Source of the DNA: Frankia sp. AgB32
Lineage (GTDB): Bacteria > Actinomycetota > Actinomycetes > Frankiales > Frankiaceae
Reading direction: 5' to 3'
Length of the DNA: 64,000 nt
Assembly (NCBI RefSeq): GCF_023243045.1
Contig: NZ_JALKFX010000001.1
Coordinates: 119,503-183,502, forward strand
How positions within the stretch are numbered: the stretch's first letter is position 1; each line of letters opens with the position of its first letter. This document shows positions 31,204-50,651 of the stretch, one piece after another. A program made the position numbers and the translations under genes. The notes beneath the pieces are model-generated. The model ran no database searches. It saw only the letters and a list, made by a program, of their open reading frames with translations, and was not told the DNA's origin.

Positions 31204-32261
31204 GGTCGTAGCGACGCCCCGATAGGATGATCGTGATGGTGTTGAGGGATGGGATGGTGGATGGTGCGGTGGGAGCTGTTGACGGTCGAGGATCGGGAGG
31301 TCATTTCCCGGGAGTTGAGCCAGGGCCGTTCGGCGCGGTTTATCGGGGCGATGCTCTGCCGGCATCATTCGACGGTCTCGCGGGAGATTGAGCGTAACGG
31401 CGGCGGGAGTGCGTACCGGGCGGTGGATGCGCAGGCGCGTTGTGACGCGATGCGGGCGCGTCCGAAGGAGCGGAAGCCTGTGGCGTCGCCGGAGCTGCAT
31501 GACGCGGTCAACGCGGGCTTGGCGGAGAGGTGGTCACCGAAACAGATCGGGGAGAGACTGAAGAAGGCTTGTCCCGACGACGAAGGCATGCGGGTGTCTC
31601 ACGAGACGATCTACGAGTGTCTGTATCTGCAGGCCCGCGGTGAGCTGCGTACCGAGCTGAAGCTCGCGTTGCGTAAGGGCCGGACCAGGCGGGTGAACCG
31701 GTCCCGGACGACCGTGGCCCGTGGCCAGATCGTCGACATGGTCAACATCAGCGAGCGGCCGAAGGAGGCCGACGACCGCGCGGTACCCGGCTTTTGGGAG
31801 GGCGACCTCGTCATCGGGAAGGGAAACAAGTCCCAGATCGCGACGCTCGTGGAGCGTACCACGCGGTTCGTCATGCTGGTGCGTATTCCCTACGACCGCA
31901 ACGCCGAGAAGGTCGCCTACCTGCTGGCGAGAAAGATGGAGACCCTTCCCGAGTTCCTTCGTAACAGTGTGACCTGGGACCAGGGGAAAGAGATGGCCCG
32001 CCACGCCGACTTCACCCTCCGGACCGGGATATCGGTGTACTTCTGTGATCCGCATTCACCCTGGCAGCGTGGGTCGAATGAGAACACCAACGGGCTTCTC
32101 CGCCAGTATTTCCCGAAGGGTACCGACCTGTCCTTGCATTCCCGGGACGAACTCGATAAAGTAGCCGCGCAGCTGAACGGAAGGCCACGCCAGACGTTGG
32201 ACTGGGCGACACCCGCCGAGGTCCTCAACGATCTACTGACAAAGCATGCGTCGCCATGACC
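31204..32261 (+). mobile_element. IS30-family insertion sequence, apparently intact
   Basis: The 1.06-kb element has imperfect 14-bp ends (GGTCGTAGCGACGC at 31204-31217; GCGTCGCCATGACC at 32248-32261; 12 of 14 match as an inverted repeat). It carries one full transposase gene. It lies inside the serine recombinase gene, whose two parts resume on either side. No target duplication is obvious. Confidence 0.85.
31249..32259 (+). CDS. IS30-family transposase
   Basis: The 336-residue enzyme is complete. An N-terminal helix-turn-helix (LTVEDREVISRELSQGRSARFIGAMLCRHHSTVSREIERNGG) recognises the ends. A second HTH region (SPKQIGERLKKACPDDEGMRVSHETIYECLY) follows. The DDE core shows WEGDLVIGKGNKSQIATLVERTTRF with the first Asp, VTWDQGKEMARHADF with the second, and DPHSPWQRGSNENTNGLLRQYFPKGTDL with the Glu, the IS30 signature. 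The stop lies within the right end. It is probably active or recently active. Confidence 0.93.
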   Translation: MGWWMVRWELLTVEDREVISRELSQGRSARFIGAMLCRHHSTVSREIERNGGGSAYRAVDAQARCDAMRARPKERKPVASPELHDAVNAGLAERWSPKQIGERLKKACPDDEGMRVSHETIYECLYLQARGELRTELKLALRKGRTRRVNRSRTTVARGQIVDMVNISERPKEADDRAVPGFWEGDLVIGKGNKSQIATLVERTTRFVMLVRIPYDRNAEKVAYLLARKMETLPEFLRNSVTWDQGKEMARHADFTLRTGISVYFCDPHSPWQRGSNENTNGLLRQYFPKGTDLSLHSRDELDKVAAQLNGRPRQTLDWATPAEVLNDLLTKHASP

Positions 32262-32622: not shown

Positions 32623-32737
32623 TGCTGTCGGGACCCACTACGGGGGTGCGACGGTGCCGTTGGGCATCTACCCGAACGGCCTAACCGCTTTCCAGGGTGC
32701 GAGCCGTGATGATCAAGTTTCAAACATCACAACTCTT

Positions 32738-32911
32738 GTGGACCTGACGCAACACAATAAGAACCGCCTGATCTTGGTTCAGGGTCCTGAGATCACCGTC
32801 CGCCCGGTCTCTGCGAGGCTCCCGACCAGGGGCGATGCCGAGTGAGCACTCGACTCGCGACATCATCGCCAGAATCGAACACGCGTTCCGTAGGTCTGGC
32901 GGGTCCGGACG
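32738..32911 (+). repeat. 174-bp diverged repeat, copy A
   Basis: Copy A is the same length as copy B (34984-35157) and clearly similar. The plus frame encodes VDLTQHNKNRLILVQGPEI then TVRPVSARLPTRGDAE and a stop. Most differences in the central part are synonymous (GGT/GGA, CCT/CCC, GAG/GAA, ACC/ACT, CGC/CGA, CCG/CCA, TCT/TCC), so this frame was translated under constraint. Confidence 0.8.
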
Positions 32912-33038
32912 CTGCGGTCCCGTTGGCGGCGCCGAGCGGGTCCCGTCGTCCCGTCAGGGGTGTGTCGCCCTCGTCCTGGCCTGGCGCCGCATCCCTGGCG
33001 GCAAGCCCCAGCCGAACTCACCGGATGGTGTGCCCGCC

Positions 33039-34885: not shown

Positions 34886-34986
34886 CCACGCCGGCCGAAC
34901 GGGGGTCCGGGGGTTGCCCCCGGGGAAACATCGCGGCCCGCCGCGAAGCCGATCAAAGATCGGCGAGCACGACGGGCCGGCTCGTG
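34886..34986. repeat. Copy of the tRNA-Ala 3'-flanking hairpin element
   Basis: This sequence matches 50475-50580, the 3' flank of tRNA-Ala, from the G-rich run to cgggccggctcgtgg. It contains a long stem (CGGCCCG...CGGGCCG) and an inner stem GCCGATC-aaa-GATCGGC; in the other copy the inner stem is GCTGAC-caaa-GTCAGC, so both sides changed together. Confidence 0.75.
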
Positions 34987-35157
34987 GACCTAACGCACCA
35001 CAATAAGAACCATTTGATCTTGGTTCAGGGACCCGAAATCACTGTCCGACCAGTCTCCACGAGGCTCCTGGCCAGGGACGAGGTCCCGTGAGTCTCCGGT
35101 CGACAACATCATCCACCGAGTCGAACACGCGTTCCGCGGGTCTGGTGGGTCCGGACG
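34984..35157 (+). repeat. 174-bp diverged repeat, copy B
   Basis: It pairs with 32738-32911. The plus frame reads LVDLTHHNKNHLILVQGPEI then TVRPVSTRLLARDEVP and stops. It begins exactly where the tRNA-flank repeat ends, sharing gtgg. Confidence 0.8.
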
Positions 35158-35281
35158 CCCGCCCTGGCCCGCCTGGTGACCATAATCGTGGCCGGGTCTC
35201 ACTCGCCGCATGCAGCTGACCCGGCGAGGCGGACTGAAACCACCGGCTCGCGTGCGGGCGAGCGGCATGCCAGGATGCCCG

Positions 35282-37150: not shown

Positions 37151-38734
37151 TCACCGTGGATGCGCGTCAGTCGGCAGGGTCCGTTTCGCCAGACTACTGA
37201 CTTCGTCGGTTCCACCGTGGGTCATGCTGACCGTTTCCTCCTCGAGATCAGCGCACATGTACACGTACTCGCCGACTCGCAGGCCGAACCGTCGGACGTA
37301 GGTACCAAAGCCGTGGGTGAATCCCGTCTCATCGTTGTACACAGCGGTGCCGCACGGTTCGCCTCGTCCATCGATCAGCTCAAACCGGGTGGAAGGGGTA
37401 CCAGCCGGGAACCATCGTCGCAGCAGAACTCCGGTGAGTTTGAAGTTGGACGTCACGGCCAACGTGACACTCGGGCGACCGTTCGGCGTAGTACCGGCGC
37501 GGAAATGCCGGTTCTCCGTCAGCGAGCGTGCCCGTGCCTGACTCTGTACGGTCGCCACCACGGCCGAGGCGACCTGCGTACCGCGGACGGTCCACGCGTT
37601 TCGGTCCAGCTGCACGAACGCGGGATGGAAGGTCAGGTACACGCTGACCGTGCTGAGGTTCATGCCGAACGCCTCGGCGGTCTCCATCAGGCTCGTGCGA
37701 TCGAGGACGCCGTTTGGTGACATCCTGATCAGCTCGACGAGAAGCGCCGCCTCGACACCCAGTTCTGCGTTGTGGTCCAGCGGGACTGTCGCGCTGAGCT
37801 CGTTGTCGTCGACCGCAAACTGGTCGTGCCACTCGCAGAACGCCCGCAGTCCGGTGATGGTCGGGGCCACCAGATCCGCTTGGTCTGCGGTGCGGCCGGA
37901 GTTGCGGTAGGTCCAGAAGTTCTCAACCGCCCGTCGTGCGCTGGGCAGGTCGACGGGCTGATGCACGGACAGAAGGGTACGGAGCGTGTTGACCAGGCGG
38001 TTTCGCACCGAGGACCCCCAGGTGACGTGGTCCTCATCGAGCCACACAACCGACTCCGACGCCGCCAACAGTGGTCTGACGTCGTCCTCGGTGACGACAA
38101 CACCGGCGTCGAGTGCCTCGTCACTGACCTGGAGCAGCGTGGCGAGGCCCTGCCGTTCGGTAAGCCTGCGAGTTGCCCTGTACACGGCGGTGAGGGTGTC
38201 GGGATCGTTGGTGACGACCCCGGCCCTCAGGTCCAGGTCGAACGGTCGTCCGGCGAACTCGGCGCACGCGCGCAGGCTGTCGAGGCTGTACCGGGTGGTG
38301 GTGACGCCTCTACGGAGCAGTTCGTCGGCCAACGCCAACTCCGTGCAGGGAGCCTGCCTCCTCGCAAGCTCCAGCGCGGCATCGAGCTGCGGCCACCACA
38401 GATACAGCCCGTAGAGAACCTTGTGCTGCTTCTGGATCTGGCGGGCGCGTTCGCGGGTTACGCCCATCGCGAGCCCTGTTTCCTCCAATGTGGCGGGTGG
38501 CTTTCCGAGCAGTCCGTACCGTGCTGCCAAACCGTTGATGACGGCCGGTCGGCAGGGCTTTCGTTTGCCATGAATCACCCTGTCCGCCCCGGACAGAATT
38601 CCGACGACCGTCGTCTCCAGCGGTTCGGTGCCGTCGAAGGTCAGTTCGGCGAACTTGCCAAGCGCACTCGCCAGGTCAACCTGCGTGTCCGGCCGATCTG
38701 GTTCCTGGGGGGCGCTGGTTTGTTTGCCCGTCAT
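37151..38734 (-). CDS. Sigma-70 region-4-like / winged-HTH protein of the defence operon
   Basis: The 527-residue protein is the last gene of the five-gene operon; its ATG shares one base with the AIPR stop (TGATG). Residues about 78-105 read PPATLEETGLAMGVTRERARQIQKQHKVL, matching the helix-turn-helix of sigma-70 region 4, without the other sigma regions. Two later segments resemble winged helices: CTELALADELLRRGVTTTRYSLDSLRACAEF, and LVELIRMSPNGVLDRTSLMETAEAFGMNLSTVSVYLTFHPAFVQLDRNAWTVRG. The C-terminal 130 residues are beta-rich (SVTLAVTSNFKLTGVLLRRWFPAGT, then GFGTYVRRFGLRVGEYVYMCADLEEE). No nuclease or ATPase motif is visible. It could bind DNA or RNA polymerase and guide or sense for the system; that role is inference. 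Confidence 0.85.
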   Translation of the reverse strand: MTGKQTSAPQEPDRPDTQVDLASALGKFAELTFDGTEPLETTVVGILSGADRVIHGKRKPCRPAVINGLAARYGLLGKPPATLEETGLAMGVTRERARQIQKQHKVLYGLYLWWPQLDAALELARRQAPCTELALADELLRRGVTTTRYSLDSLRACAEFAGRPFDLDLRAGVVTNDPDTLTAVYRATRRLTERQGLATLLQVSDEALDAGVVVTEDDVRPLLAASESVVWLDEDHVTWGSSVRNRLVNTLRTLLSVHQPVDLPSARRAVENFWTYRNSGRTADQADLVAPTITGLRAFCEWHDQFAVDDNELSATVPLDHNAELGVEAALLVELIRMSPNGVLDRTSLMETAEAFGMNLSTVSVYLTFHPAFVQLDRNAWTVRGTQVASAVVATVQSQARARSLTENRHFRAGTTPNGRPSVTLAVTSNFKLTGVLLRRWFPAGTPSTRFELIDGRGEPCGTAVYNDETGFTHGFGTYVRRFGLRVGEYVYMCADLEEETVSMTHGGTDEVSSLAKRTLPTDAHPR

Positions 38735-40764
38735 CAGGCATCCGTGTTCCCGGTCAGGGCGAAGCCGTTGTTGAGGGCGGCGTCGTAGATCCTTCTGAGG
38801 CTGTCGATCTGCTTGTCGGTCGGCGTCTTTCCCGCGCTCAGCAGTACTGCGGTACCGGATGCGATGCGCCGGTCAACGGCGGTAAGCTTATTGTGCTCGC
38901 CCGCCCAGGCAGCCAGCTCCGACCAGGGCACGAGCAGTAGGTCCTCGGTGCTGATACTGGACGCGACGATCTGGATCGGGTCTTTCGTGGTGAGCTGGGC
39001 GACGGTTGCCCCGCTGAGCTTCCACGGTAGGGCGCGCGCCTTCTCCCAGCACGCTGGCTTCTTGGCCCATTCGCCGACGTTGCCGGGTGTCCGGTCGAAG
39101 AACGACCGGAGCAGTCGGGCCAGCGCCGGGATCTCGCTGCGCAGCTGCTCCGGTATCTGTTGGGTACGCCAGATGACGTCAAGGTCGAGGCGCCGGCTGG
39201 TACGATTGCTGATCAGCGCCACGGCGTAGGCGACGACCTGCGCCTTGTAGCCCTCCAAGCCGCTCTCCCGGAACGTCCTGGCCACGATCCTGTCAGTCTG
39301 TCGGAACAGGATCGCCTTCGCGACAAGGTGCTCGTAGTAGCGCCGAGAGGGCTTCTGGTCCTGCTCCGGACGTTGCGCGAGCCGCAGTGCGAACTCGGCG
39401 AAGCACTTCTGACCACCGAGGCTGACGGCGTGCGGAGCCTCGTCCCAGGCGAGCTCGAACTTCGCCAGGTCGGTCTTGACGAACTTTTGCGCGGCCGGAT
39501 GGATCTCCTTGAATGCCTTCTGCCTGGCCGGTGTCCCCGTTCGGGCCAGCTCGTCCTGGTACTGGCCGCGGGCACGTTCGTAGAACCATCGGGTCTGCCG
39601 CTGGCTGCCGTTCGTGGCCGGCGCCCACACCGATCGGGAGAGACGTTCGATGTCGACATGGAAGGAGTGACTGGTGCTGAAGTCCGCCTCCTGGACCTTG
39701 TTCTGGCTGTTGGCATAGCGGGAGATCAGCGGGACGAGCTCGGCGAGTTGGTCCGGCGGGACGACGGTGAGCTTCATCTGGACGTGTATCCCGTCCAGCG
39801 TCGCCCTGTGTCGGACTGCCGCGTGGTATAGGGACGCGGTGGTCTGGCCGCCGTTGACGATCTGTAGGTCCTGCAGGCTGGCGATGGCGCTGCCGCCCTC
39901 GGGCGTCCTGACTATGTCGACGGCAGATGCGGTCGCGGAGATGCCGTTGTTGTAGGCGAGGAACCGGCGAGGCTCGTTGAGTATGGTATCGCGGATACCC
40001 TGGTTGACCTTGCCCCTTGCCTGCAGGAACGACCGCACGTTGAGTTCGAGCAGGCGGGCGGAGTACGTCGCGTAGATCTCCTTCAGCACGGTACCGGGCA
40101 CGATGGCCAGCATCGTGTGACATCCCTGCTCGTCAAGGTCGGTGGGAAGACACGGGACTGGCGCACCGAACCGGCTGAGGAAGTCGACGTGGATGGGCTC
40201 CTGCTGCCGGCCAGAGGTCACCAGTCGGTGCAACCGCACCACGTCCCAGACCTGGACCGACGTCGGAACATCACCGAACTCCGGCGTCGCCACGTCCTTC
40301 CTGGTGGCGACCCCACCATCGGTGAACAACCAGAACCGGACCCGAGTGAGTTCCGGGAGAACCTGGCTGATGCTGTGCGCCATGTCGAACACCGGTGAAG
40401 CCACCTCAAGCCCGGCTGTGCGGTTCCGCGACACCTTCTCCAGGAAACCGCGCAGCCGCCGGAGACAGGTCTCGATCTCCGCCTTGCCGACGGGTGCGGG
40501 TGGCGCCACCTGCCTGAGCACTACGCCGAACAGGTCGAGCGTCTGGCCATCGACGCTGATGTTGTAGCCCGAGATCTCCTCGCCGCGCGCCTGGTGGAAA
40601 CAGGCCTCCCCGCCCTCGAGTTCGGCGACATCGGTGAGCTCGCCGACCATCCGTTCAAGGAAAACGTCGCGGATGTTCCGCTCCGCGCCGGGCACACCCG
40701 CCTCCGCGCGCAGATCGTCCTGGAGCGACTCGGTGAACTGGCCGAGATCGGTGTCGTCGGTCAT
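38734..40764 (-). CDS. AIPR (abortive-infection phage-resistance) family protein
   Basis: The 676-residue protein starts at ATG 40764, overlapping the DUF4420 stop by 4 nt (ATGA). The AIPR core is recognised by FLAYNNGISATASAVDIV, then LQIVNGGQTTASLYHAAVRHR and SRYANSQNKVQEADFS. The N-terminal third (AELEGGEACFHQARGEEISGYNISVDGQTLDLFGVVL) resembles a restriction-fold region. AIPR proteins occur in phage-defence loci, often with restriction-type partners; the mechanism is not settled. In this operon it sits between a PD-(D/E)XK protein and the sigma-like protein. Confidence 0.9.
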   Translation of the reverse strand: MTDDTDLGQFTESLQDDLRAEAGVPGAERNIRDVFLERMVGELTDVAELEGGEACFHQARGEEISGYNISVDGQTLDLFGVVLRQVAPPAPVGKAEIETCLRRLRGFLEKVSRNRTAGLEVASPVFDMAHSISQVLPELTRVRFWLFTDGGVATRKDVATPEFGDVPTSVQVWDVVRLHRLVTSGRQQEPIHVDFLSRFGAPVPCLPTDLDEQGCHTMLAIVPGTVLKEIYATYSARLLELNVRSFLQARGKVNQGIRDTILNEPRRFLAYNNGISATASAVDIVRTPEGGSAIASLQDLQIVNGGQTTASLYHAAVRHRATLDGIHVQMKLTVVPPDQLAELVPLISRYANSQNKVQEADFSTSHSFHVDIERLSRSVWAPATNGSQRQTRWFYERARGQYQDELARTGTPARQKAFKEIHPAAQKFVKTDLAKFELAWDEAPHAVSLGGQKCFAEFALRLAQRPEQDQKPSRRYYEHLVAKAILFRQTDRIVARTFRESGLEGYKAQVVAYAVALISNRTSRRLDLDVIWRTQQIPEQLRSEIPALARLLRSFFDRTPGNVGEWAKKPACWEKARALPWKLSGATVAQLTTKDPIQIVASSISTEDLLLVPWSELAAWAGEHNKLTAVDRRIASGTAVLLSAGKTPTDKQIDSLRRIYDAALNNGFALTGNTDA

Positions 40765-41774
40765 GCCTTCGTTTCCAGGGCGGTGATCATGTCCTCGTGG
40801 CTGACGAGGAACGAGGTGGCGGCCAGCAGGTCGACGGTGTAACGGACGCCGGACACCCCGACCGGTCTGGTCTGCTCGATGATCCGGGGAAAGCCGTCTG
40901 TCACCCGGTGGACCGTCCGACCGCGCAGCGCGTATCGCCGGTCCTCGTACAGCCGGCTCTGTGTGTCCAGGTAGCCGGCACGTACCAGCCGCCGATCCAG
41001 CTCGCCCGCGCCCCCGAGGCCGGTTGCCTGGTGACGCACCTGGCGAACGAGTTCGGGAAGGGACATTCCACGTCCGCCCTGGCGCGCGTCGAGCGCCAGC
41101 GTCACCAGGAACAACGCCCCCGGTCCGGCGTCGTTGAGCTGTCGTTCGCTGCTGATCCACACCCGGTTGGCGTCGTGTCCAGCCGCGGTCTTGATCTCCA
41201 CGCTGCCGGACTGGAACTGGAAGTCCTGCAACTCCTGGTCGGGGCCGGTCCAAGCGTACACCGCCGCCGGGCCGAACGTCGGGAGGAACAGGTCGGACAT
41301 CGTGTGCAGCTCGCCGAACAGCCCACGCTGCCGCTCTCGTGGCAGCCCGTCGGGACTGACCCCGGACAGCATCCGCTGCCACTCACTCAGCCGGTTCACC
41401 ACCACGTCGCCCGGTTCCGTGGTGACCTGGGTGAGCATCACGAGCAGGTCGGCCACCAGCGTGGTGAAGATGTCCGTGTACGCACCCGCGCGCAGCACGA
41501 GGTCCAACGTGGTCCCGTACTCCGGGAGGCTCCCCGGCTCGACCACCACGCCGGAGGTGACCAGCAGCCCCTTCGTCGCGCTGGCCGGGGTGTGGTCGGT
41601 GACCACCGAGAACACCCGACGCGCGGCCGGGTACTCGACGGCGACGAAACAGTGGTGTGGACTGTCCGCCAGCACCCGCCGAACCCGCCGGCCGGCCGAG
41701 CCCGGGCCACCCTGCCTGGCCTCCAGTTCGGCCCAGAGTTCCTCAAGGTCCGTGGCGGACGGTACCGCGGTCAC
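40761..41774 (-). CDS. DUF4420 PD-(D/E)XK nuclease-like protein
   Basis: The 337-residue protein starts at GTG 41774, overlapping the helicase stop. The nuclease-like motif lies about residue 190-210: a D (QDFQFQSGS) followed by VEIKTA (E-x-K), as in PD-(D/E)XK folds. Other family features are RLSEWQRML, RGLFGELHTMSDLFLP and a late QTRPVGVSGVRYTVDL. DUF4420 proteins are found with Z1 helicases and MORC-like ATPases in restriction-type loci, where they are the likely DNA cutter. No metal-binding test is possible from sequence. Confidence 0.9.
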   Translation of the reverse strand: MTAVPSATDLEELWAELEARQGGPGSAGRRVRRVLADSPHHCFVAVEYPAARRVFSVVTDHTPASATKGLLVTSGVVVEPGSLPEYGTTLDLVLRAGAYTDIFTTLVADLLVMLTQVTTEPGDVVVNRLSEWQRMLSGVSPDGLPRERQRGLFGELHTMSDLFLPTFGPAAVYAWTGPDQELQDFQFQSGSVEIKTAAGHDANRVWISSERQLNDAGPGALFLVTLALDARQGGRGMSLPELVRQVRHQATGLGGAGELDRRLVRAGYLDTQSRLYEDRRYALRGRTVHRVTDGFPRIIEQTRPVGVSGVRYTVDLLAATSFLVSHEDMITALETKA

Positions 41775-44620
41775 GCCTGCTCCTCGTCGGATTCCTCGCC
41801 GCCGAACTCCTGGCTGCCGAACTCCTGGTCCCACCACAGGTTCGTCACTCGGTACTTGATGGTCTTCGCGGTCGGACTCTTCGGAAAGCTGAGGGCGAAC
41901 CCGACGGGCGGCAGGTCGGGATGCATCCAGGTGTCGGGCCGGAGCGGATACAGCAACAACAGTCCGCGACCCGGTGGGCGGACCTCACGGATGGCGAGCC
42001 CGCCCGGCGCGCTGGGCGCCGTCTTCCTCGTCTTCGGGTCCGCCTGCCAGGCCTGCCTGGTCATCTCCAGAGCTCGCCCGCCCTCCTCGTCGGAGAGGTC
42101 CAAGCCCTCGTCGCTCGGCGAGACGAGGCGACGGACCACGTAGCGGTCCTTCCCCGCCCGCAGCCCGGCCTTGTACTCCGCGTCGGCGTTCGCGCCTTCC
42201 CTCGGCAGGTACAGGGCCCGCCGGACCAGGCCGACCTCGAACTCACCGATCCGGTGAGTCCTCAGGTCGTCGCCGGAGACCGACACGAGCCCCACAGTCC
42301 ATGTGGTGAGCTCCGGCTGCTCGGTGGTCAACAGCGTCCTGACGTAGTCGGCCAGTGCTCGCGGCTGTGCCTTGGTCGCGACGTCGGAGGCCTGGTACCT
42401 GTCCAGGAAATCCAGCACGTCGGCCGCCGGCACGTTGTCCCACCGAACGGTGCCGAGAGCACCCCGGCGGGGTGCCGGAGTGCCCATGACACCGACCAGG
42501 CGCTTGGTGGCGGCCAGGTTGGTGCGGAGCACCTCCTCGTCGGTCTCGAAGGTGATCGACTCGCTGATTGTCTGGGAGAAGGTGATATCGACGTCGGTGC
42601 CGTTGCGCATCTTGGTTCGGGCGGTGATCATCAGCCCGTCCGGATGCGCACGGACCCGCAGCCCGTACTCCTGCGGGGTCTTCCCGAGCGCCGCCATGTA
42701 GTCGAACTCGCGCAGCAGTTCCTCGTTGGCCAGCGCGATGTCCCGGTACCACCCGGCCAGCTCGTCGGTCGTGTAGAGCCGGCACAGGTCGAGGTAGCCG
42801 GGTCGGTAGCCGAACCAGCGGCCCATCTGCATCAGCGTGTCGTACATCCTCGACGCCCGCAGGTAGTAGCTGACCGTCAGCCCCTCGAGGGTCAGACCGC
42901 GGGAGAGCTTGTCCCCACCGATCGCGATCAGCGTCAGCGGCTGGTCGGCCTCACTGTAGGTCAGCGCGTCCTCGGACTTGCCGTTGAGAATGCGCAGTTC
43001 GACGTCGTCGAGCACGCCCGGAAGCGCCTCGCGGATCTGCGCCCAGTCGATGACCCCACCAACTTCCAACGTCACGTCCGGGTTCCGCAGCAGCGACTCG
43101 GTGGTCGGTACGAAGTCGCTTCGCCACAAGGACTCCAGGGCGGGCCAGGGGGAGTCCGGGCTGGTGGGGTCGCCGTGCCACAGGCGCTGGCGCATCAGGC
43201 CCAGATGCTCGTGCAGGGCTCGGCGGAGCAGCGCCTGGACGTCGGTGAAGCGGGTGACGTGCACCAACATCGAGTTGTGGTCCTCGTGGCCCCGAACCCG
43301 ACGGGCGGCCGTGGCGAGTAGGAAGGCGTTGATCGCGGTGAGCAGCGATGCCGGCAGTCGGCCCGGGACGGTGTCCTTTCCGTGCTTGTTCGGGAGCCAC
43401 ATCTCGTGGTCGTCGAAGGTACTGATGATCGGTAGTCCGACCTGCCCCTCGATGCCGGAGTTCGCGTCGCGGTCCAGGCCGAACACCCTGTTCACGCCCA
43501 CGTAGTTGCTCGGTGGCCGGAGGCTGATGATGAAGCTGCGTGGGAAGAGGTCCTCGCCGTACTTCTCGGTCCTCGCGTCAGCATCGATGAACACGTTGGC
43601 GAACGGCGTGGCGGTGTACGCGAGGTACGCGGACTTCTCGAACGTGCGCAGCAGCTTCCGGATCAGACCGTTGATCTTGGTTGGGTCGTAGTCGTCGATC
43701 GGCTGCCCGTTCTCGTCAGTCGGCCGGGCCCTGGTGTTGACCGACGCGTTGTCCGCCTCGTCGTCGATCACCAGCAACGGAACGTCGCGCACGATCTGCT
43801 GACCGGTCTCCGGGTCACGTTCCTGGTTCAGCCGGGTCGCCCACGAGTGTAGGTTCCGCAGTACGGACGCGTTCTTCTTGACCACCAGAATGACCGGGTC
43901 GCCGCCGCCCGCGTTGAGCCAGACCTGCCGGGCGACCTTGACCTGGAAGTCACCCTTCTCGTCGCTGCTGGTCAACGAGTGGACGTGGAGGAACTTCCCC
44001 GGCATCCGCCCGACGCCGACCTTGGCATTGGACTGGTCGTAGCTGCGGTTGCTCCTCGTGTCGAACCCGAGGAACTCCAGGTCCAGCCGGTGCTGGGTCT
44101 GGCTGCGCAGGCTGTTGTGCAGACCGGCCAACACGACGATCAGGCGGTAGCCGGCGTCCGCCGCCTTGCAGATGACGCCGGTGTAGTTGGCGGTCTTGCC
44201 GGACTGCACCTGCCCGACCACCATCCCGCGACGGTCCCACCGGCCAGGCCGGTCCGGCTTCTCGAACGAACCCAGAATCCGGTCGGTGACCTGGTCGATG
44301 CTGCGAATCTGGGCTGGTGCCCAGTCCTTCCGGCCCAGATACCGCCGGTACCGTTCCCAGAAGCTCCAGTCGATCTCGCCCCGGGCGGCGTCGAGCCAGG
44401 GTACGTGGTCCTCACGGCCGTTGAGAACCTGTTCGGTCGGAAGCCAGACGTTGCACCGACTCTCTACGTCCCGCCGCAACTCGCCGACGTCGACGTTGGC
44501 CTGCTCCACAAGAAGCAGCGCCTTGTCGACCGCCTGTTCGACCTCGTAGGCCGTAACGTCGTCTTCGTCGTCGAGCAACATCAGGGCGATCTCCATCGCC
44601 CTGCGATGGTCGGGGTTCAT
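41771..44620 (-). CDS. Z1-domain superfamily II helicase/ATPase
   Basis: The 949-residue protein has all the helicase motifs: Walker A VVGQVQSGKTANYTG, the DEAD-type LLVIDDEADNAS, YTATPFANVFID as motif III, IAIGGDKLSRGLTLEGLTVSYYLR as motif V and MQMGRWFGYRPGYLDLCRLYTT as motif VI, with the Z1 domain around it. It is likely a DNA translocase. It overlaps both neighbours by 4 nt. In related loci Z1 helicases pair with GHKL ATPases and nucleases, acting after modification status is read. Confidence 0.93.
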   Translation of the reverse strand: MNPDHRRAMEIALMLLDDEDDVTAYEVEQAVDKALLLVEQANVDVGELRRDVESRCNVWLPTEQVLNGREDHVPWLDAARGEIDWSFWERYRRYLGRKDWAPAQIRSIDQVTDRILGSFEKPDRPGRWDRRGMVVGQVQSGKTANYTGVICKAADAGYRLIVVLAGLHNSLRSQTQHRLDLEFLGFDTRSNRSYDQSNAKVGVGRMPGKFLHVHSLTSSDEKGDFQVKVARQVWLNAGGGDPVILVVKKNASVLRNLHSWATRLNQERDPETGQQIVRDVPLLVIDDEADNASVNTRARPTDENGQPIDDYDPTKINGLIRKLLRTFEKSAYLAYTATPFANVFIDADARTEKYGEDLFPRSFIISLRPPSNYVGVNRVFGLDRDANSGIEGQVGLPIISTFDDHEMWLPNKHGKDTVPGRLPASLLTAINAFLLATAARRVRGHEDHNSMLVHVTRFTDVQALLRRALHEHLGLMRQRLWHGDPTSPDSPWPALESLWRSDFVPTTESLLRNPDVTLEVGGVIDWAQIREALPGVLDDVELRILNGKSEDALTYSEADQPLTLIAIGGDKLSRGLTLEGLTVSYYLRASRMYDTLMQMGRWFGYRPGYLDLCRLYTTDELAGWYRDIALANEELLREFDYMAALGKTPQEYGLRVRAHPDGLMITARTKMRNGTDVDITFSQTISESITFETDEEVLRTNLAATKRLVGVMGTPAPRRGALGTVRWDNVPAADVLDFLDRYQASDVATKAQPRALADYVRTLLTTEQPELTTWTVGLVSVSGDDLRTHRIGEFEVGLVRRALYLPREGANADAEYKAGLRAGKDRYVVRRLVSPSDEGLDLSDEEGGRALEMTRQAWQADPKTRKTAPSAPGGLAIREVRPPGRGLLLLYPLRPDTWMHPDLPPVGFALSFPKSPTAKTIKYRVTNLWWDQEFGSQEFGGEESDEEQA

Positions 44621-46143
44621 GCCGTCTCCTGACCGGGTTCGCGGGTACAGACCTCCCGAACCAGGTCGGGAAAGTCAGAGAACGGTTCCATTGTCAGCAT
44701 CCGACCGACAATTTCCGGGTTGGACATCCCCGCGCGTCCCATCGCCCGGACGACGTCGGTCAGCACCGACCAGACCACGGCCGGGTCGGTCTCCTCGAAC
44801 GGCGCCGCCTGCCGGCCCTGCCGGTCCGCATGGTTCAGGATGATCAGCGGAACCGGAACGGTCTCCTCCAGCAGCCTGACCAGGGCCTCGACGTCACCGC
44901 CGTCCGCCGCCGTGAGCAGCGCGGCCACCAGCGGGTGCTGACGGTTGACCTGGTAGGCGATCTTCGTCCCGCGTGCGACCTGTAGCCAGGCCTGGACCAC
45001 TTCACCCTGGCTGGTCCGCTGAAGTACCTTGCCGCGGTGTCGGTAGACACTTGTCGACCGCAGCCGAACGACCTCGGCGATCCGCCGCAACCCGGGCCCC
45101 AGCGCGCCCGGCGCGCGGGCCACCGACTTACGGACGTCGATCTGCCAGTCGGAGTCCAGGTGGTTGGGCAGATCGAGCCGGATCCGGGCCAGCGAGGTCA
45201 GCTCGTCCCGCCGGAATCCGAGCCCGAGCCAGCTTCCGGACACGATCAGCCGTCGGTTCCGGTAGATGTAGAACCCCTGCTGGGAGGTCCAGCCACGACG
45301 ACCCCCAGCGGTGGTGTGCTCCTGGGAGGTCAGCCGGCTCACGTGCGGCAGGACGAACGACTTCACCCTGATCAGCTCGTCCCGGCACGGCAGCGACTCG
45401 TCCGTGACCACCTGGGTGGTCTCGTGGGACTCGAGGAACGGGTCCCACGGCACGACGTTCCGGCCGTTCACCCGGATCGTGATCTGCCCGGGCCCCGTGA
45501 CGTACCGATGGAAGGTCATCCCGAGATGCCGGGCAACCCGGTCGGCGATGTCGTAGAAGTGCCGCTCAGCCTGCTCGTTCCGCGGATCAGGTGCGGCAAC
45601 CAGTCGGTCCAGCCCTCGCCACAGCACCACCGTTCCCGGCCGGTCACCGTGCAGCTCGTCCCACCGCGCCCGGTCCTCGGCGGCCAACGTCGTCAGGAGC
45701 TGCCAGGCGCCGACGCGGACGACGTGGTCGAGATCCCACGTCCGAGCCGCCAGCGACGAGCTCGTCGTCGCCGACATGACGACCAGCCGCCGGCACTGCG
45801 AGAACGACGCGGTCTTCAGCCCGAGCCCGAACCGCCCGAGGTCGTTCGCCCTTCTCGGCGTCGAAGGGCTGGTCGTGCCCGGCCGCATCGCCTCCCGGAG
45901 CCCGGCACCGTCCATCCCGAGACCGTCGTCGACGACCGCGATCCACGACTCCGCGCCGGCCCAACGCAGGCGGACGTCGATCGAGGTGGCCTTGGCCGTG
46001 ATGCTGTTGTCAACCAGATCCGCAACCGCGGTCTCGGTGGAGTAGCCGAACGCGCGAAGGGACTCCACCAACGACTCCGCGCGAGGTTCGACCACCTCGT
46101 AGCCGGTCACGCTGCCGCCGTCGGACGATCTTCGGTCGGCCAC
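44617..46143 (-). CDS. MORC/MutL-like GHKL ATPase of a restriction-type system
   Basis: The 508-residue protein starts at GTG 46143 with AGGAGG 4-5 nt upstream; the frame is open further, but that part lacks motifs. GHKL signatures: SLRAFGYSTETAVADLVDNSITAKAT (N box with E and DN), WIAVVDDGLGMDGAGL (G1, D-x-G-x-G) and ANDLGRFGLGLKTASFSQCRRLVV (G2). An S5-like region (GRRGWTSQQGFYIYRNRRLIVSG) follows. This is the ATP-clamp part of bacterial MORC-like proteins known from restriction systems, not MutL mismatch repair: no mutS and no MutL C-terminal domain. It is the first gene of the operon and divergent from the methyltransferase gene. Confidence 0.9.
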   Translation of the reverse strand: MADRRSSDGGSVTGYEVVEPRAESLVESLRAFGYSTETAVADLVDNSITAKATSIDVRLRWAGAESWIAVVDDGLGMDGAGLREAMRPGTTSPSTPRRANDLGRFGLGLKTASFSQCRRLVVMSATTSSSLAARTWDLDHVVRVGAWQLLTTLAAEDRARWDELHGDRPGTVVLWRGLDRLVAAPDPRNEQAERHFYDIADRVARHLGMTFHRYVTGPGQITIRVNGRNVVPWDPFLESHETTQVVTDESLPCRDELIRVKSFVLPHVSRLTSQEHTTAGGRRGWTSQQGFYIYRNRRLIVSGSWLGLGFRRDELTSLARIRLDLPNHLDSDWQIDVRKSVARAPGALGPGLRRIAEVVRLRSTSVYRHRGKVLQRTSQGEVVQAWLQVARGTKIAYQVNRQHPLVAALLTAADGGDVEALVRLLEETVPVPLIILNHADRQGRQAAPFEETDPAVVWSVLTDVVRAMGRAGMSNPEIVGRMLTMEPFSDFPDLVREVCTREPGQETA

Positions 46144-46289: not shown

Positions 46290-48449
46290 GTGCGTACCGT
46301 ATGCTCTCGGGCCGGTAACCCGGTACGCAGAGTGATGGGCCGTAGTTCTGCCGTCCACCCCACCGTGATCGAACCGTCAACCTGGCTGCGAGCCACCCCG
46401 GCCAAAATCGTCGGACCCCACCGTTATCGTTACTGTCGTCCATCGGCCCCGGTGACGGACGGACGGCGACCCGACATCGAGATCCTGGGCCCCTTGATCC
46501 AGGACGATGTCCGTGTTCTCCTGGTGCTCGTTGACGCAGACGTTCGGGAAGGGTATCGGCGAGTGTCCACTTACGGGGTCAAGCTGCAACGCAGCGACGA
46601 TCTGCGACTGGTCCGCCATCCGGATGGCTGTACAGGGGACACTTTCGAGCAGTGGTGCGCGCAGAGGCTGGCGGAGGGAAAGCGGCTCGCCGTCGACCTC
46701 TTCTCCGGCGCCGGGGGGCTGAGCCTCGGGCTGGAGGAGGCTGGCTGGACGGTCGCGGTCTCCGTCGACAACGACGAGAAGGCCGTGCAGACGCACAGCC
46801 ACAACTTCCCCGGTCTGGCCCTGGACCTCGACCTCAGCGAACCCTCACAGCGTCAGGGGCTCGTCGATCTCCTCAACACGACCAACATCGATCTCCTCGC
46901 CGGCGGACCACCCTGCCAGCCGTTCAGTCGCGCCGGTCGCAGCAAGATCCGAAGCTTGGTGGTCGCCGGGCACCGCGAGGAACATGACCGTCGGCGTGAG
47001 CTGTGGCAGGCGTTCCTCGATGTCGCGCTGGCCGTGCGGCCTCGGGCTGTCCTGATGGAGAACGTTCCGGATATGGCCCTCGGTGACGACTTCGCCGTGG
47101 TGCGGACCATGGTCGACGCACTGGAACGCGGCGGTTACTACACCGAGTTCAGACTGGTCGATGCGTGGCGTTACGGCGTTCCCCAACATCGGAAGCGTCT
47201 CATAGTCCTTGCTCGGCGTGATGTCGAGGACTTCGCCTGGCCGGCCGAGCAGAGCAGGCAGCCAACACTGCGCGACGCGATCGGTGACCTCCCCGAACTC
47301 GGCGACACCACCGGCGCTCGCGAGCTGCCCCACAGCAGGCTCCGACGTCTGTCTGCCTTCGCCAGGACGATGCGAGCCGGCGCCCGGAACGGCATCGTGT
47401 GGGACCACATGACCCGGCCGGTGCGGGACGACGACCGCGCGATTTTCGGAATGATGGACGCCTCCACTCTGTACGCCAACCTTCCCGCAGCCCTGAGGCG
47501 CTACTCGGCCGAGACTTTCGACGACAAGTACAAGAAGCTCGACTGGAACTCGGTGAGCCGCTCCATCACCGCCCACATCGCCAAGGACGGCTACTGGTAC
47601 ATCCATCCCCAGGAGCTCAGGACTCTCACGGTCCGCGAGGCCGCCCGAGTTCAGACCTTCCCCGATCGCTTCCGATTCGCGGGTACCCGCAGCGACGCGT
47701 TCCGCCAGATTGGTAACGCCGTTCCCCCGCTCCTGGGACGCGCCGCAGCGACTGCGCTCCACCCGGCACCGACGTACGAACGTTCCGAGGAGCGGCTGGG
47801 GGAAGCATCACGCTGGGTACAGGCGAGGCAGGCGCTTACCATCTGGGCAGCGCAGCAGCAGCGCGGCCCCAACTGGTATGCGCTGCCCGGTCCGGACCTC
47901 ACGCCGGCCGTGGCCGCAGTCGCGGCACTCCTGTTGAACCGTTCCAGCTCTCCCAAGGGAACCGACCAGGCGCTTTCCGTGATCCGCGGCCGTGCGCGGC
48001 TGGCGAGGGCGGAGCTGGACCAGATGCAGCAGGAACTCCCGACGCAGGCCGGACGTCAGGTGCTGGAACGGTTCCGCCCACTGCTGCCGAAGCGCAAGCT
48101 CTGGGCGGACCCCGAGGCACTGATCGAGCACCTGACAATGAAAGCAGCGGAGGAGCGAACCTTCCGACTCCTGATCGGCGAGGACGTACTCCTTGCCTCC
48201 CAGACGACTCTCAGGGTTGCGGCCCGAGTGGCTGGCAGTGACTCGGACAGGACGAACAGGTTGAGCGACGGCCGTGTCGATCTGGCCAGGCTGGTCGGAG
48301 CCGGCGCGGAGGCGCCGCTGCGTACAGCGGCACTCCGGCTGCTCGGCAGTACGGTGTGCAGGGCACCCAGCACCGTGTGCGGCGACTGCCCGCTCCAGCA
48401 GCAGTGCGTCGGCAGCTCCGGTGAGCGTGCCGTGCAGACCCTGTTCTAG
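46290..48449 (+). CDS. C5-cytosine DNA methyltransferase with EndoIII-type FeS C-terminus
   Basis: Motifs run in order: LAVDLFSGAGGLSLGLEEAG (SAM site, from residue about 133), GGPPCQPFSRAG with catalytic Cys near residue 208, MENVPDM near 257, PQHRKRLIVLARR and IGNAVPPLLGR at the end of the core. After the core, a 220-residue domain ends in Cys690-x6-Cys697-x2-Cys700-x5-Cys706. That spacing is the same as the [4Fe-4S] loop of endonuclease III and MutY. Just before it, LRVAARVAGSDSDRTNRL resembles the HhH-GPD R-v-x-x-R segment, but the glycosylase Asp/His positions are not conserved. The start is unclear: GTG 46290 is the longest, ATG 46335 and GTG 46452 are alternatives. Its stop overlaps the convergent vsr stop by 4 nt. 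Confidence 0.92.
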   Translation: MRTVCSRAGNPVRRVMGRSSAVHPTVIEPSTWLRATPAKIVGPHRYRYCRPSAPVTDGRRPDIEILGPLIQDDVRVLLVLVDADVREGYRRVSTYGVKLQRSDDLRLVRHPDGCTGDTFEQWCAQRLAEGKRLAVDLFSGAGGLSLGLEEAGWTVAVSVDNDEKAVQTHSHNFPGLALDLDLSEPSQRQGLVDLLNTTNIDLLAGGPPCQPFSRAGRSKIRSLVVAGHREEHDRRRELWQAFLDVALAVRPRAVLMENVPDMALGDDFAVVRTMVDALERGGYYTEFRLVDAWRYGVPQHRKRLIVLARRDVEDFAWPAEQSRQPTLRDAIGDLPELGDTTGARELPHSRLRRLSAFARTMRAGARNGIVWDHMTRPVRDDDRAIFGMMDASTLYANLPAALRRYSAETFDDKYKKLDWNSVSRSITAHIAKDGYWYIHPQELRTLTVREAARVQTFPDRFRFAGTRSDAFRQIGNAVPPLLGRAAATALHPAPTYERSEERLGEASRWVQARQALTIWAAQQQRGPNWYALPGPDLTPAVAAVAALLLNRSSSPKGTDQALSVIRGRARLARAELDQMQQELPTQAGRQVLERFRPLLPKRKLWADPEALIEHLTMKAAEERTFRLLIGEDVLLASQTTLRVAARVAGSDSDRTNRLSDGRVDLARLVGAGAEAPLRTAALRLLGSTVCRAPSTVCGDCPLQQQCVGSSGERAVQTLF

Positions 48450-49272: not shown

Positions 49273-50025
49273 TCAGCTATCAGCCCGATCGGAGAAGTCG
49301 ATCTTCAGCTGAGATTGGACGTCGAGTTGCGAATCACCACCAAGAGCCGGTTGTACATCATCACGGTGCGGTACTCGCGCAAGGAGGTTGATCACGAGTC
49401 CGGCCAGCCGGCTCGTCTCGAACACGGACGGCGCCAGGATGACAAGAAGTTCCGGCCGCGCGGGGTCGATAGTGAATCCACAGCCACTCTCCTCGACCAG
49501 TGGCTGCAACTGCTGGACAACCCGCCTGCTGGCCGCGAAGTAGACCACCGGATGATCAGACCAGGCGTGGCGGTCGCCGTGCCCCCGGCAGCTGGCCGCG
49601 GGGAAGGCACCGAACTCCGCCAGCGCATAGGTCAGGCCGGCAACGCCGATCTCCAGGCCATCGAGTGTAGGTTCGTCGTAGGGCCCCCTCAGCAGGACGT
49701 CGGCGAGGTCGCTTCCGGCAGGCAGGTCGATGCTATCTCGACCCTCGACCGCAGTGGCCAGCTCTGCGAAGTGGTCCGGGCTATCCGCCAAGAGACAGAG
49801 GCCATCAATGATCTTTCGCTCTTCCTCCACGATTCCCGAAGCAACACCCGGGCCCAGATCGGCTATCACCCAGTTGTCCCGGAAGTAGCCGAAGCCTTCG
49901 TCGTCGGTCAGATCATCGTCGCTCGGCAGCCAGTAAGCCGCCGCCTTTGGGATTGTCGGGTCAACATCGATGTCCGCACAGGGAAAGACTCGTCGGAAGC
50001 TCTCGCGCTCCACCATCCTCGTCAT
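49273..50025 (-). CDS. Hypothetical protein (250 aa) at the edge of the defence island
   Basis: The gene has good start signals (GGAGG just before ATG 50025) and regular coding. Recognisable segments are AYWLPSDDDLTDDEGFGYFRDNW, LTYALAEFGAFPAASCRGHG (with a Cys-x-Gly-His pattern), HPVVYFAASRRVVQQLQPLVEESGCGFTIDPARPELLVILAP. I do not assign a family. It may be a defence or nucleotide-signalling component or unrelated. A 10-bp palindrome overlaps its leader (50032-50041). Confidence 0.7.
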   Translation of the reverse strand: MTRMVERESFRRVFPCADIDVDPTIPKAAAYWLPSDDDLTDDEGFGYFRDNWVIADLGPGVASGIVEEERKIIDGLCLLADSPDHFAELATAVEGRDSIDLPAGSDLADVLLRGPYDEPTLDGLEIGVAGLTYALAEFGAFPAASCRGHGDRHAWSDHPVVYFAASRRVVQQLQPLVEESGCGFTIDPARPELLVILAPSVFETSRLAGLVINLLARVPHRDDVQPALGGDSQLDVQSQLKIDFSDRADS

Positions 50026-50474: not shown

Positions 50475-50577
50475 TTACACGCCGGCGGGACGGGGGGCTC
50501 GGGGGGTTGTCCCCCCGAAAAACATTGCGGCCCGCCGCGAAGCTGACCAAAGTCAGCGAGCACGACGGGCCGGCTTG
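50475..50577. terminator. Hairpin element downstream of tRNA-Ala
   Basis: Read on the minus strand this is the tRNA 3' flank: an outer stem of 7 or more bp (CGGCCCG/CGGGCCG), an inner stem GCTGAC/GTCAGC and a G-rich/C-rich pair (GGGGGG...CCCCCC) with a T-rich stretch (TTTTT). It probably ends the tRNA transcript. A diverged copy is at 34886-34986. Confidence 0.6.
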
Positions 50578-50651
50578 TGGAGGTGAGGGGACTCGAACCC
50601 CTGGCCTCCTCCGTGCGAGGGAGGCGCTCTACCAGGCTGAGCTACACCCCC
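50578..50651 (-). tRNA. tRNA-Ala (anticodon CGC)
   Basis: The cloverleaf is complete: acceptor GGGGGTG/CACCTCC with the G3:U70 pair that marks alanine tRNAs, D-arm GCTC...GAGC, anticodon stem CCTCC/GGAGG with loop CTCGCAC (anticodon CGC), variable loop of 5 and T-arm AGGGG-TTCGAGT-CCCCT. The CCA end is not encoded. It reads GCG codons. Confidence 0.95.

What the first reader, a model, noticed from the sequence alone, without database searches (positions are those of the whole stretch)
46290..48449. C5-methyltransferase with an endonuclease III-type iron-sulfur loop at its C-terminus
The last 30 residues hold Cys-x6-Cys-x2-Cys-x5-Cys (690-706), the exact spacing of the [4Fe-4S] loop in EndoIII and MutY, preceded by a stretch resembling the HhH-GPD R-v-x-x-R segment with its catalytic residues lost. 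A DNA base-modifying enzyme joined to a degenerate repair-glycosylase tail could read DNA lesions or redox state, or position the enzyme on mismatched DNA, next to a Vsr that repairs deaminated products.
Basis: partly seen in the sequence, partly recalled or inferred. Interest (0 to 1): 0.72.

Follow-up and report, generated by a model that had tools for sequence, protein, structure and literature searches.

The report
DNA methyltransferase with dead repair-glycosylase tail
A bacterial phage-defence locus encodes a DNA cytosine methyltransferase whose rear part is a complete copy of the MutY repair-enzyme fold that has lost its catalytic and damage-reading residues but keeps the four cysteines that hold an iron-sulfur cluster, suggesting that a repair enzyme was recycled as a non-cutting accessory part of a self-marking enzyme.

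Summary
Residues 690-706 of the ORF carry Cys-x6-Cys-x2-Cys-x5-Cys, the only such match in six frames of the window. The tail is more than a motif. A profile of 72 homologous tails matches the whole MutY catalytic domain (PDB 5kn8, E 5.9e-15; MutY proteins from genomes, E 8.8e-18). AlphaFold2 gives an HhH-GPD fold (pLDDT 91; the top Foldseek hits are all MutY, MUTYH, Mig and EndoIII). All four Cys are present in 67 of 80 homologues and all lost in one clade of 13. The catalytic Asp is absent from all 72 tails; the QQT wedge, GY wedge, GxG hairpin and basic loop residues are also gone. So this is a catalytically dead, MutY-type, probably [4Fe-4S]-binding accessory domain. "Lesion reader" is not favoured, because the lesion-reading residues are lost. 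The gene lies in an MZA-like (MutL/Z1/PD-(D/E)XK/AIPR) defence locus with Vsr, already predicted as a defence system (PMC9523054). Searched papers do not mention the tail. Most likely role: a non-catalytic scaffold or docking module of the methyltransferase. The correct start is 46563 (628 aa), not 46290.

The parts
46563..48449 (+). True coding sequence of the fused C5-methyltransferase / MutY-type tail protein (628 aa, GTG start; the given 46290 start is upstream over-annotation)
   Evidence: GTG at codon 92 preceded by GGGAAGGG; relatives of the window's subfamily have a start codon at the same place
46692..47756 (+). C5-cytosine methyltransferase domain (ORF residues 135-489), with GGPPCQPFS, ENV, QHRKR and GNAV motifs
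   Evidence: PF00145 E 2e-57; TIGR00675 above cut-off; invariant columns; Foldseek DNMT1/MET1/M.HaeIII
47802..48446 (+). MutY-type HhH-GPD-fold tail (ORF residues 505-719), catalytically degenerate
48198..48200 (+). Ser637 at the position of the MutY catalytic Asp (D138 in E. coli MutY)
   Evidence: never Asp in 72 tails
48213..48227 (+). R-V-A-A-R (642-646), the retained R-x-x-x-R of the HhH-GPD core
   Evidence: first R in 63/63, second R in 61/63 Cys-bearing tails
48267..48299 (+). Family-specific conserved stretch, (S/T)xGRxxxARLxG (660-670), not found in MutY
   Evidence: motif pattern in 55 of 63 Cys-bearing tails
48357..48407 (+). Iron-sulfur-loop motif C690-x6-C697-x2-C700-x5-C706
48446..48904 (-). 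Vsr T:G mismatch endonuclease, tail to tail with the methyltransferase, ends overlapping by 4 bp
   Evidence: TIGR00632 above cut-off; PF03852
44617..46443 (-). MzaB-like MutL/GHKL ATPase, divergent from the methyltransferase (true start probably near 46090)
   Evidence: PF13589; NCBIfam MzaB E 2e-139 but below the equivalog cut-off
41771..44620 (-). MzaC-like Z1 helicase-family protein
   Evidence: PF10593; MzaC E 1.6e-236, below the equivalog cut-off
40761..41837 (-). MzaD-like PD-(D/E)XK protein (DUF4420)
   Evidence: PF14390 E 1.5e-71
38734..41382 (-). MzaE-like AIPR protein (ORF over-extended; conserved part begins near 40740)
   Evidence: PF10592, PF22879
37151..38734 (-). Fifth gene of the operon with a sigma-70 region 4 (only that segment resembles MzaA)
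   Evidence: PF04545; NF041931 MzaA E 6.7e-5 over region 4 only
49273..50025 (-). 250-aa ORF of unknown family beyond Vsr, similar ORFs present in three homologous loci
   Evidence: L001, L003, L013; no Pfam hit

Best explanation
The gene encodes a C5-cytosine methyltransferase, with all the usual catalytic motifs, whose C-terminal third is a complete but catalytically dead MutY-type HhH-GPD domain that very probably still binds a [4Fe-4S] cluster. Shown by computation: the fold, the full-length homology to MutY, retention of the four Cys under purifying selection, loss of the catalytic Asp and of the lesion-reading and hairpin residues, and a new conserved (S/T)xGRxxxARLxG stretch. Inferred: the methyltransferase marks host DNA as self for the neighbouring MZA-like restriction machinery (MutL-type ATPase, Z1 helicase-family protein, PD-(D/E)XK nuclease, AIPR protein), and Vsr repairs T:G mismatches left by deamination of its 5-methylcytosine. 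Inferred: the tail works as a rigid, non-catalytic accessory module, held together by the cluster as a structural staple. It braces the methyltransferase on DNA and/or docks it to a partner such as the GHKL ATPase, rather than excising bases or scanning for lesions.
For: Profile of 72 tails vs PDB: MutY 5kn8 E 5.9e-15 over profile 10-215 = MutY 6-220, Mig.Mth 1kea E 9.6e-12. hhalign to a MutY alignment: probability 99, E 8.8e-18, 197 columns. AF2 tail model pLDDT 91.1, pTM 0.87; all 50 listed PDB hits are MutY/MUTYH/Mig/EndoIII/ROS1. Full-length model pTM 0.88, so the tail is predicted to pack in a defined way on the methyltransferase. Four Cys all present in 67/80 and all absent in 13/80, one clade, support 100. 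Catalytic Asp position T/N/S/G and never D in 72. QQT wedge, GY wedge, GxG hairpin and the basic residues of the loop lost. dN/dS 0.05-0.31 in the Fe-S segment and 0.08-0.28 in the rest of the tail, so the tail is maintained. Tail detected in every homologue returned (the Tsukamurella copy is frameshifted but its tail is found in another frame), in the more distant Synechococcus plasmid copy and in two viral contigs. A MutL/GHKL-type ATPase N-terminal domain lies in 67/80 loci, 3 of the 13 others being short contigs; Vsr in 54/80. The genome has separate MutY and Nth genes, so the tail is not the cell's only copy.
Against: No biochemical evidence: neither iron nor the methylation target has been measured. 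Tail Foldseek TM-scores are only about 0.5-0.58 (rmsd 5-6), so the two sub-domains are shifted relative to MutY. One clade keeps the tail without the Cys, so the cluster is not essential to the family. DNA binding by the tail is not excluded (net charge about +6 in the window protein).
Confidence: 0.6

Rival explanations
1. The tail is a DNA reader: a glycosylase made inactive by loss of Asp (like MutY D138N) that still binds mismatched, hemimethylated or damaged DNA and steers the methyltransferase there.
For: MutY/Mig ancestry, net positive tail in the window protein, Vsr next door in 54/80 loci; the Asp position is Asn in 18 of 72 tails, as in MutY Asp-to-Asn mutants whose structures are listed, one of them bound to DNA.
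Against: QQT wedge absent in all 63 Cys-bearing tails examined, GY wedge replaced (R/T/K), GxG hairpin lost, and the loop's basic residues not conserved. These are the contacts by which MutY and EndoIII find lesions (from established structural knowledge).
Confidence: 0.18
2. The cluster is a redox or iron-status switch, or takes part in DNA-mediated charge transport, gating methylation and therefore self-marking.
For: Strict all-or-none retention of the Cys with loss of most other functional residues. The clusters of EndoIII and MutY are redox-active on DNA (review PMC9266487).
Against: The Cys-less clade keeps methyltransferase and tail. A structural role of the same cluster explains retention equally well. 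In EndoIII/MutY the redox activity depends on DNA contact, and the loop's basic contact residues are not conserved here.
Confidence: 0.12
3. The tail is an active glycosylase using altered catalysis, excising T from T:G produced by deamination of the enzyme's own 5mC, as Mig.MthI does beside a methyltransferase (from memory).
For: Mig.Mth is among the top PDB relatives; the Glu position is E or D in 40 of 72 tails.
Against: No Asp in any of 72 tails, hairpin lost, Glu position is Pro in the window protein, and Vsr already covers the same lesion.
Confidence: 0.05
4. The four Cys bind Zn as a simple structural knuckle.
For: Loop spacing varies in 7 of 67 members, which a Zn site would tolerate.
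Against: The loop sits exactly where MutY has its [4Fe-4S] loop, with the CPL signature in the same place, and MutY homologues show similar spacing variation (L085-L087).
Confidence: 0.05

Closest known systems
MutY / MUTYH adenine glycosylase catalytic domain (HhH-GPD superfamily)
   Same: Whole-domain sequence and fold match, [4Fe-4S] loop spacing and CPL signature, conserved W of LPW, R-x-x-x-R helix
   Different: Catalytic Asp lost in all, Glu lost in the window protein, GxG hairpin, QQT and GY wedges lost; no C-terminal oxoG-reading domain; fused behind a methyltransferase
Mig.Mth T:G mismatch glycosylase
   Same: [4Fe-4S] HhH-GPD relative (1kea, E 9.6e-12); naturally associated with a C5-methyltransferase (from memory)
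   Different: Mig.Mth is a separate, active enzyme; the tail is fused and lacks the catalytic Asp
MZA anti-phage system (mzaABCDE)
   Same: MutL-type ATPase, Z1, PD-(D/E)XK and AIPR genes together, and a fifth gene with sigma-70 region 4
   Different: All four Mza proteins score below the NCBIfam equivalog cut-offs; this locus adds the methyltransferase and Vsr; the fifth gene resembles MzaA only over region 4
Putative Z1 + PD-(D/E)XK + cytosine methyltransferase defence system, types I/II (PMC9523054)
   Same: Same core genes; type II adds AIPR and is associated with a MORC-family protein, and is described as reminiscent of mzaABCDE; type I is associated with repair endonucleases
   Different: The section read describes the methyltransferase without any C-terminal domain; the window locus has AIPR, MutL-type ATPase and Vsr together
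paraMORC restriction-modification operons (PMC2292703) and HEF_HK / Response_reg_2 loci (PMC8011034)
   Same: GHKL ATPase with C5-methyltransferase, Vsr, nuclease, AIPR; the Cys-less clade sits beside a two-ATPase-domain protein of this kind
   Different: Neither paper's text mentions a glycosylase (term searches)

Membership tests
C5-cytosine DNA methyltransferase (PF00145) | Family profile above the curated cut-off and motifs PCQ, ENV, QxRxR, GN | tested here: met
   195.5 bits vs 22; invariant columns
HhH-GPD superfamily, MutY branch | Overall fold and whole-domain homology | tested here: met
HhH-GPD superfamily, MutY branch | Four-Cys [4Fe-4S] loop | tested here: met
   the cluster itself was not measured
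HhH-GPD superfamily, MutY branch | Catalytic Asp (D138 in E. coli MutY) | tested here: not met
   Ser637 in the window; never Asp in 72 tails
HhH-GPD superfamily, MutY branch | Helix-hairpin-helix with GxG | tested here: not met
   window T-M-K in place of G-I-G; not conserved in the family
HhH-GPD superfamily, MutY branch | Glycosylase activity | not testable with these tools
   Needs purified protein; predicted absent
MutY (NCBIfam TIGR01084 equivalog) | Score above the equivalog cut-off 286.5 bits | tested here: not met
   18.4 bits for the window tail: relative, not MutY
MZA system | MzaB, C, D, E at equivalog level | tested here: not met
   465/850, 787/1500, 139/420, 388/1050 bits: related, not equivalogs
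MZA system | MzaA sigma-factor gene | tested here: inconclusive
   The fifth gene has sigma-70 region 4; the MzaA profile hits only that segment
Z1/PD-(D/E)XK/cytosine MTase system type II of PMC9523054 | Z1, PD-(D/E)XK, cytosine methyltransferase, AIPR, MORC/GHKL together | tested here: met
   for the genes, for the definition

The most novel reading that the evidence does not exclude
A family of phage-defence C5-methyltransferases in which a captured, dead MutY domain with a [4Fe-4S] cluster gates self-methylation, or its coupling to the MutL-type ATPase effector, in response to cluster redox state or iron supply.
Probability: 0.12. Interest if true: 0.8.

Novelty: new variant of a known kind. 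Interest (0 to 1): 0.56.

Why it matters
Iron-sulfur clusters are not, to my knowledge, known in C5-methyltransferases. A widespread subfamily carrying a dead [4Fe-4S] glycosylase domain, within a predicted phage-defence system whose mechanism is unknown, gives a concrete handle on how methylation is coupled to restriction. It also offers a natural test of whether EndoIII/MutY-type clusters serve structure, DNA contact or redox signalling: the domain kept the Cys while losing catalysis and lesion reading, and one clade then lost the Cys as well.

Tried and rejected
TAL-effector hits at the head of the PDB profile search are repeat/composition artefacts: no single stretch passes, and they cover only the mid-tail helices. 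The single-sequence PDB search was weak (MutY E 0.058), and its first four typed residues (DRLQ) did not match the window; it was superseded by the profile search. The idea that the tail replaces a missing MutY/Nth was rejected, since both exist elsewhere in the genome. A known phage or plasmid origin: no phage record at E 1e-40; the only close plasmid relative is from Synechococcus. Cys loss tied to a change of ATPase partner: not consistent, because Cys-bearing L042/L043 have the same partner type as the Cys-less clade. Spread in the phylum of the Erythrobacter homologue: 0 of 298 further genomes at E 1e-18. The viral structure library gave nothing significant. Sigma-70 promoter scan of the divergent gap found none.

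Full report
WHAT IS THERE. The ORF 46290-48449 (+) encodes a C5-cytosine methyltransferase (PF00145, E 2e-57, residues 135-489) and ends in a Cys-x6-Cys-x2-Cys-x5-Cys motif at residues 690-706. The motif occurs once in the six frames of the window and in none of 20,000 shuffles of the protein. The annotated start is too early: the likely start is GTG at 46563 (codon 92), preceded by GGGAAGGG, and relatives of the window's subfamily begin at the same place, three codons before YGVKL. The protein is therefore 628 aa.

THE TAIL IS A WHOLE MUTY-TYPE DOMAIN. The window sequence alone gives only weak MutY hits (NCBIfam E 0.0013-0.006; PDB E 0.058). Eighty homologous loci were fetched and 72 non-redundant tails aligned (A1). 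Searched as a profile against PDB sequences, they match the full MutY catalytic domain (5kn8, E 5.9e-15, profile 10-215 to MutY 6-220) and the T:G glycosylase Mig.Mth (1kea, E 9.6e-12); TAL-effector matches in the same list are repeat artefacts. Sixty-three of 72 tails hit NCBIfam mutY on their own, best E 2.2e-14, and one hits nth; 15 hit the Pfam EndIII iron-sulfur domain. Profile-profile comparison with MutY proteins taken from bacterial genomes gives probability 99, E 8.8e-18 over 197 columns. AlphaFold2 on A1 gives an all-helical model with pLDDT 91.1 and pTM 0.87, and the 50 listed PDB fold matches are MutY, MUTYH, Mig, EndoIII and one ROS1, probability 0.95-1.00, query-normalised TM 0.41-0.56. 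The moderate TM-score points to a shifted arrangement of the two sub-domains. The full-length model (pTM 0.88) suggests that the tail packs in a defined way on the methyltransferase.

WHAT IS KEPT AND WHAT IS LOST. All four Cys are present in 67 of 80 sequences (60 with the exact spacing, 7 with one of the gaps altered) and all four are absent in 13. The 13 form one clade (support 100, one change on the tree), so the Cys were lost together, once. The position of the catalytic Asp is T, N, S or G in most tails and never D in 72; it is Ser637 here. The catalytic Glu position is E in 30, D in 10 and Pro in the window, with some alignment uncertainty there. The QQT wedge is absent from all 63 Cys-bearing tails, the GY wedge is replaced, the GxG hairpin is not conserved, and the basic residues between the first two Cys are not conserved. 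What stays is the R-x-x-x-R helix (first R 63/63, second R 61/63), the core Trp residues, the CPL signature (CP in 62 of 63) and a new (S/T)xGRxxxARLxG stretch (55 of 63) with no counterpart in MutY. Among close relatives dN/dS is 0.05-0.31 in the Fe-S segment, 0.08-0.28 in the upstream tail and 0.08-0.12 in the methyltransferase. The tail is thus maintained by selection, though more loosely than the enzyme.

CONTEXT. Divergent from the methyltransferase run MzaB-, MzaC-, MzaD- and MzaE-like genes and a fifth gene with sigma-70 region 4. Convergent with it, and overlapping by 4 bp, is Vsr (TIGR00632 above cut-off). Across 80 loci the recurring companions, judged by similarity to the window's proteins, are a MutL/MzaB-type protein (62), Vsr (54), Z1 (46), PD-(D/E)XK (45) and AIPR (40); a GHKL ATPase N-terminal domain is detectable in 67. 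This locus type is known. paraMORC/helicase/methyltransferase/Vsr/AIPR operons were described in PMC2292703, and PMC9523054 predicted the Z1 + PD-(D/E)XK + cytosine methyltransferase set as a defence system, type II of which resembles mzaABCDE. A term search found no 'glycosylase' or 'HhH' in PMC2292703 and no 'glycosylase' in PMC8011034, and four further literature searches found no report of the fusion. The library holds open-licence papers only, so absence there is not proof of novelty.

HOW IT MOST LIKELY WORKS. Shown: a methyltransferase with intact motifs, joined to a dead MutY-type domain that retains its Fe-S ligands under selection. Inferred: methylation marks self DNA for the MZA-like effector, and Vsr repairs the T:G mismatches that 5mC deamination causes. 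Because the lesion-reading and DNA-contact residues are gone while fold, cluster ligands and a new conserved stretch stay, I favour a structural, docking role for the tail over a lesion or mismatch reader (confidence 0.6 overall). A DNA-reader role (0.18) and a redox or iron switch (0.12) remain open; active excision (0.05) and a Zn site (0.05) are unlikely.

OTHER POINTS. Five loci (L010, L011, L022, L024, L025) carry two tail-bearing genes; in L010, L022, L024 and L025 the second copy is a methyltransferase on the opposite strand. This may reflect two methyltransferases for an asymmetric target (inference). The window locus lies beside a tRNA-Ala gene, with direct repeats 34909-34988 / 50503-50581 and GC of about 0.65-0.68 against about 0.70-0.76 on most of the flanks, as expected of an integrated island.

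VERDICT. New variant of a known kind, interest 0.56.

Noticed in passing
window 34909-34988 and 50503-50581; tRNA-Ala 50577-50651 (-): Two long direct repeats (82% and 93% in two pieces, start-to-start about 15.6 kb), one ending at the 3' end of a tRNA-Ala(CGC) gene, bracket the whole MZA-like locus, which has lower GC than most of the flanks: probably the attachment-site repeats of an integrated island.
   Followed up: partly
window 32735-32912 and 34981-35158: Further pair of related repeats (81-87%, 2246 bp apart) next to the left island repeat; may mark a second, nested insertion.
   Followed up: no
window 31249-32259 (+): Transposase/integrase (rve core with HTH_38) just left of the island repeats.
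   Followed up: no
window 49273-50025 (-): 250-aa ORF without Pfam or PADLOC match beyond Vsr; similar ORFs (28-41%) are present in loci L001, L003 and L013, so possibly an unrecognised accessory of this defence locus.
   Followed up: partly
L010 12779-14797 (-), L022 5110-7185 (-), L024 10375-12657 (-), L025 10591-12651 (-), L011 5976-7853 (+): Second tail-bearing gene in the same locus; the first four encode C5-methyltransferases with their own Cys motif. Could indicate an asymmetric recognition site methylated by two enzymes.
   Followed up: partly
L041 7911-9783: The Tsukamurella copy of the methyltransferase is frameshifted before the tail, which continues in another frame: pseudogene, sequencing error or programmed shift not resolved.
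   Followed up: partly
L026 9731-13167: The Cys-less clade sits beside a protein with both HATPase_c_3 and HATPase_c domains and a weakly response-regulator-like protein, as in the HEF_HK/Response_reg_2 pair of PMC8011034.
   Followed up: partly
L015 1759-6123 (+): 1454-aa open frame matching MzaA (sigma) and then part of MzaB in one chain: possible MzaA-MzaB fusion, or an over-extended frame.
   Followed up: no
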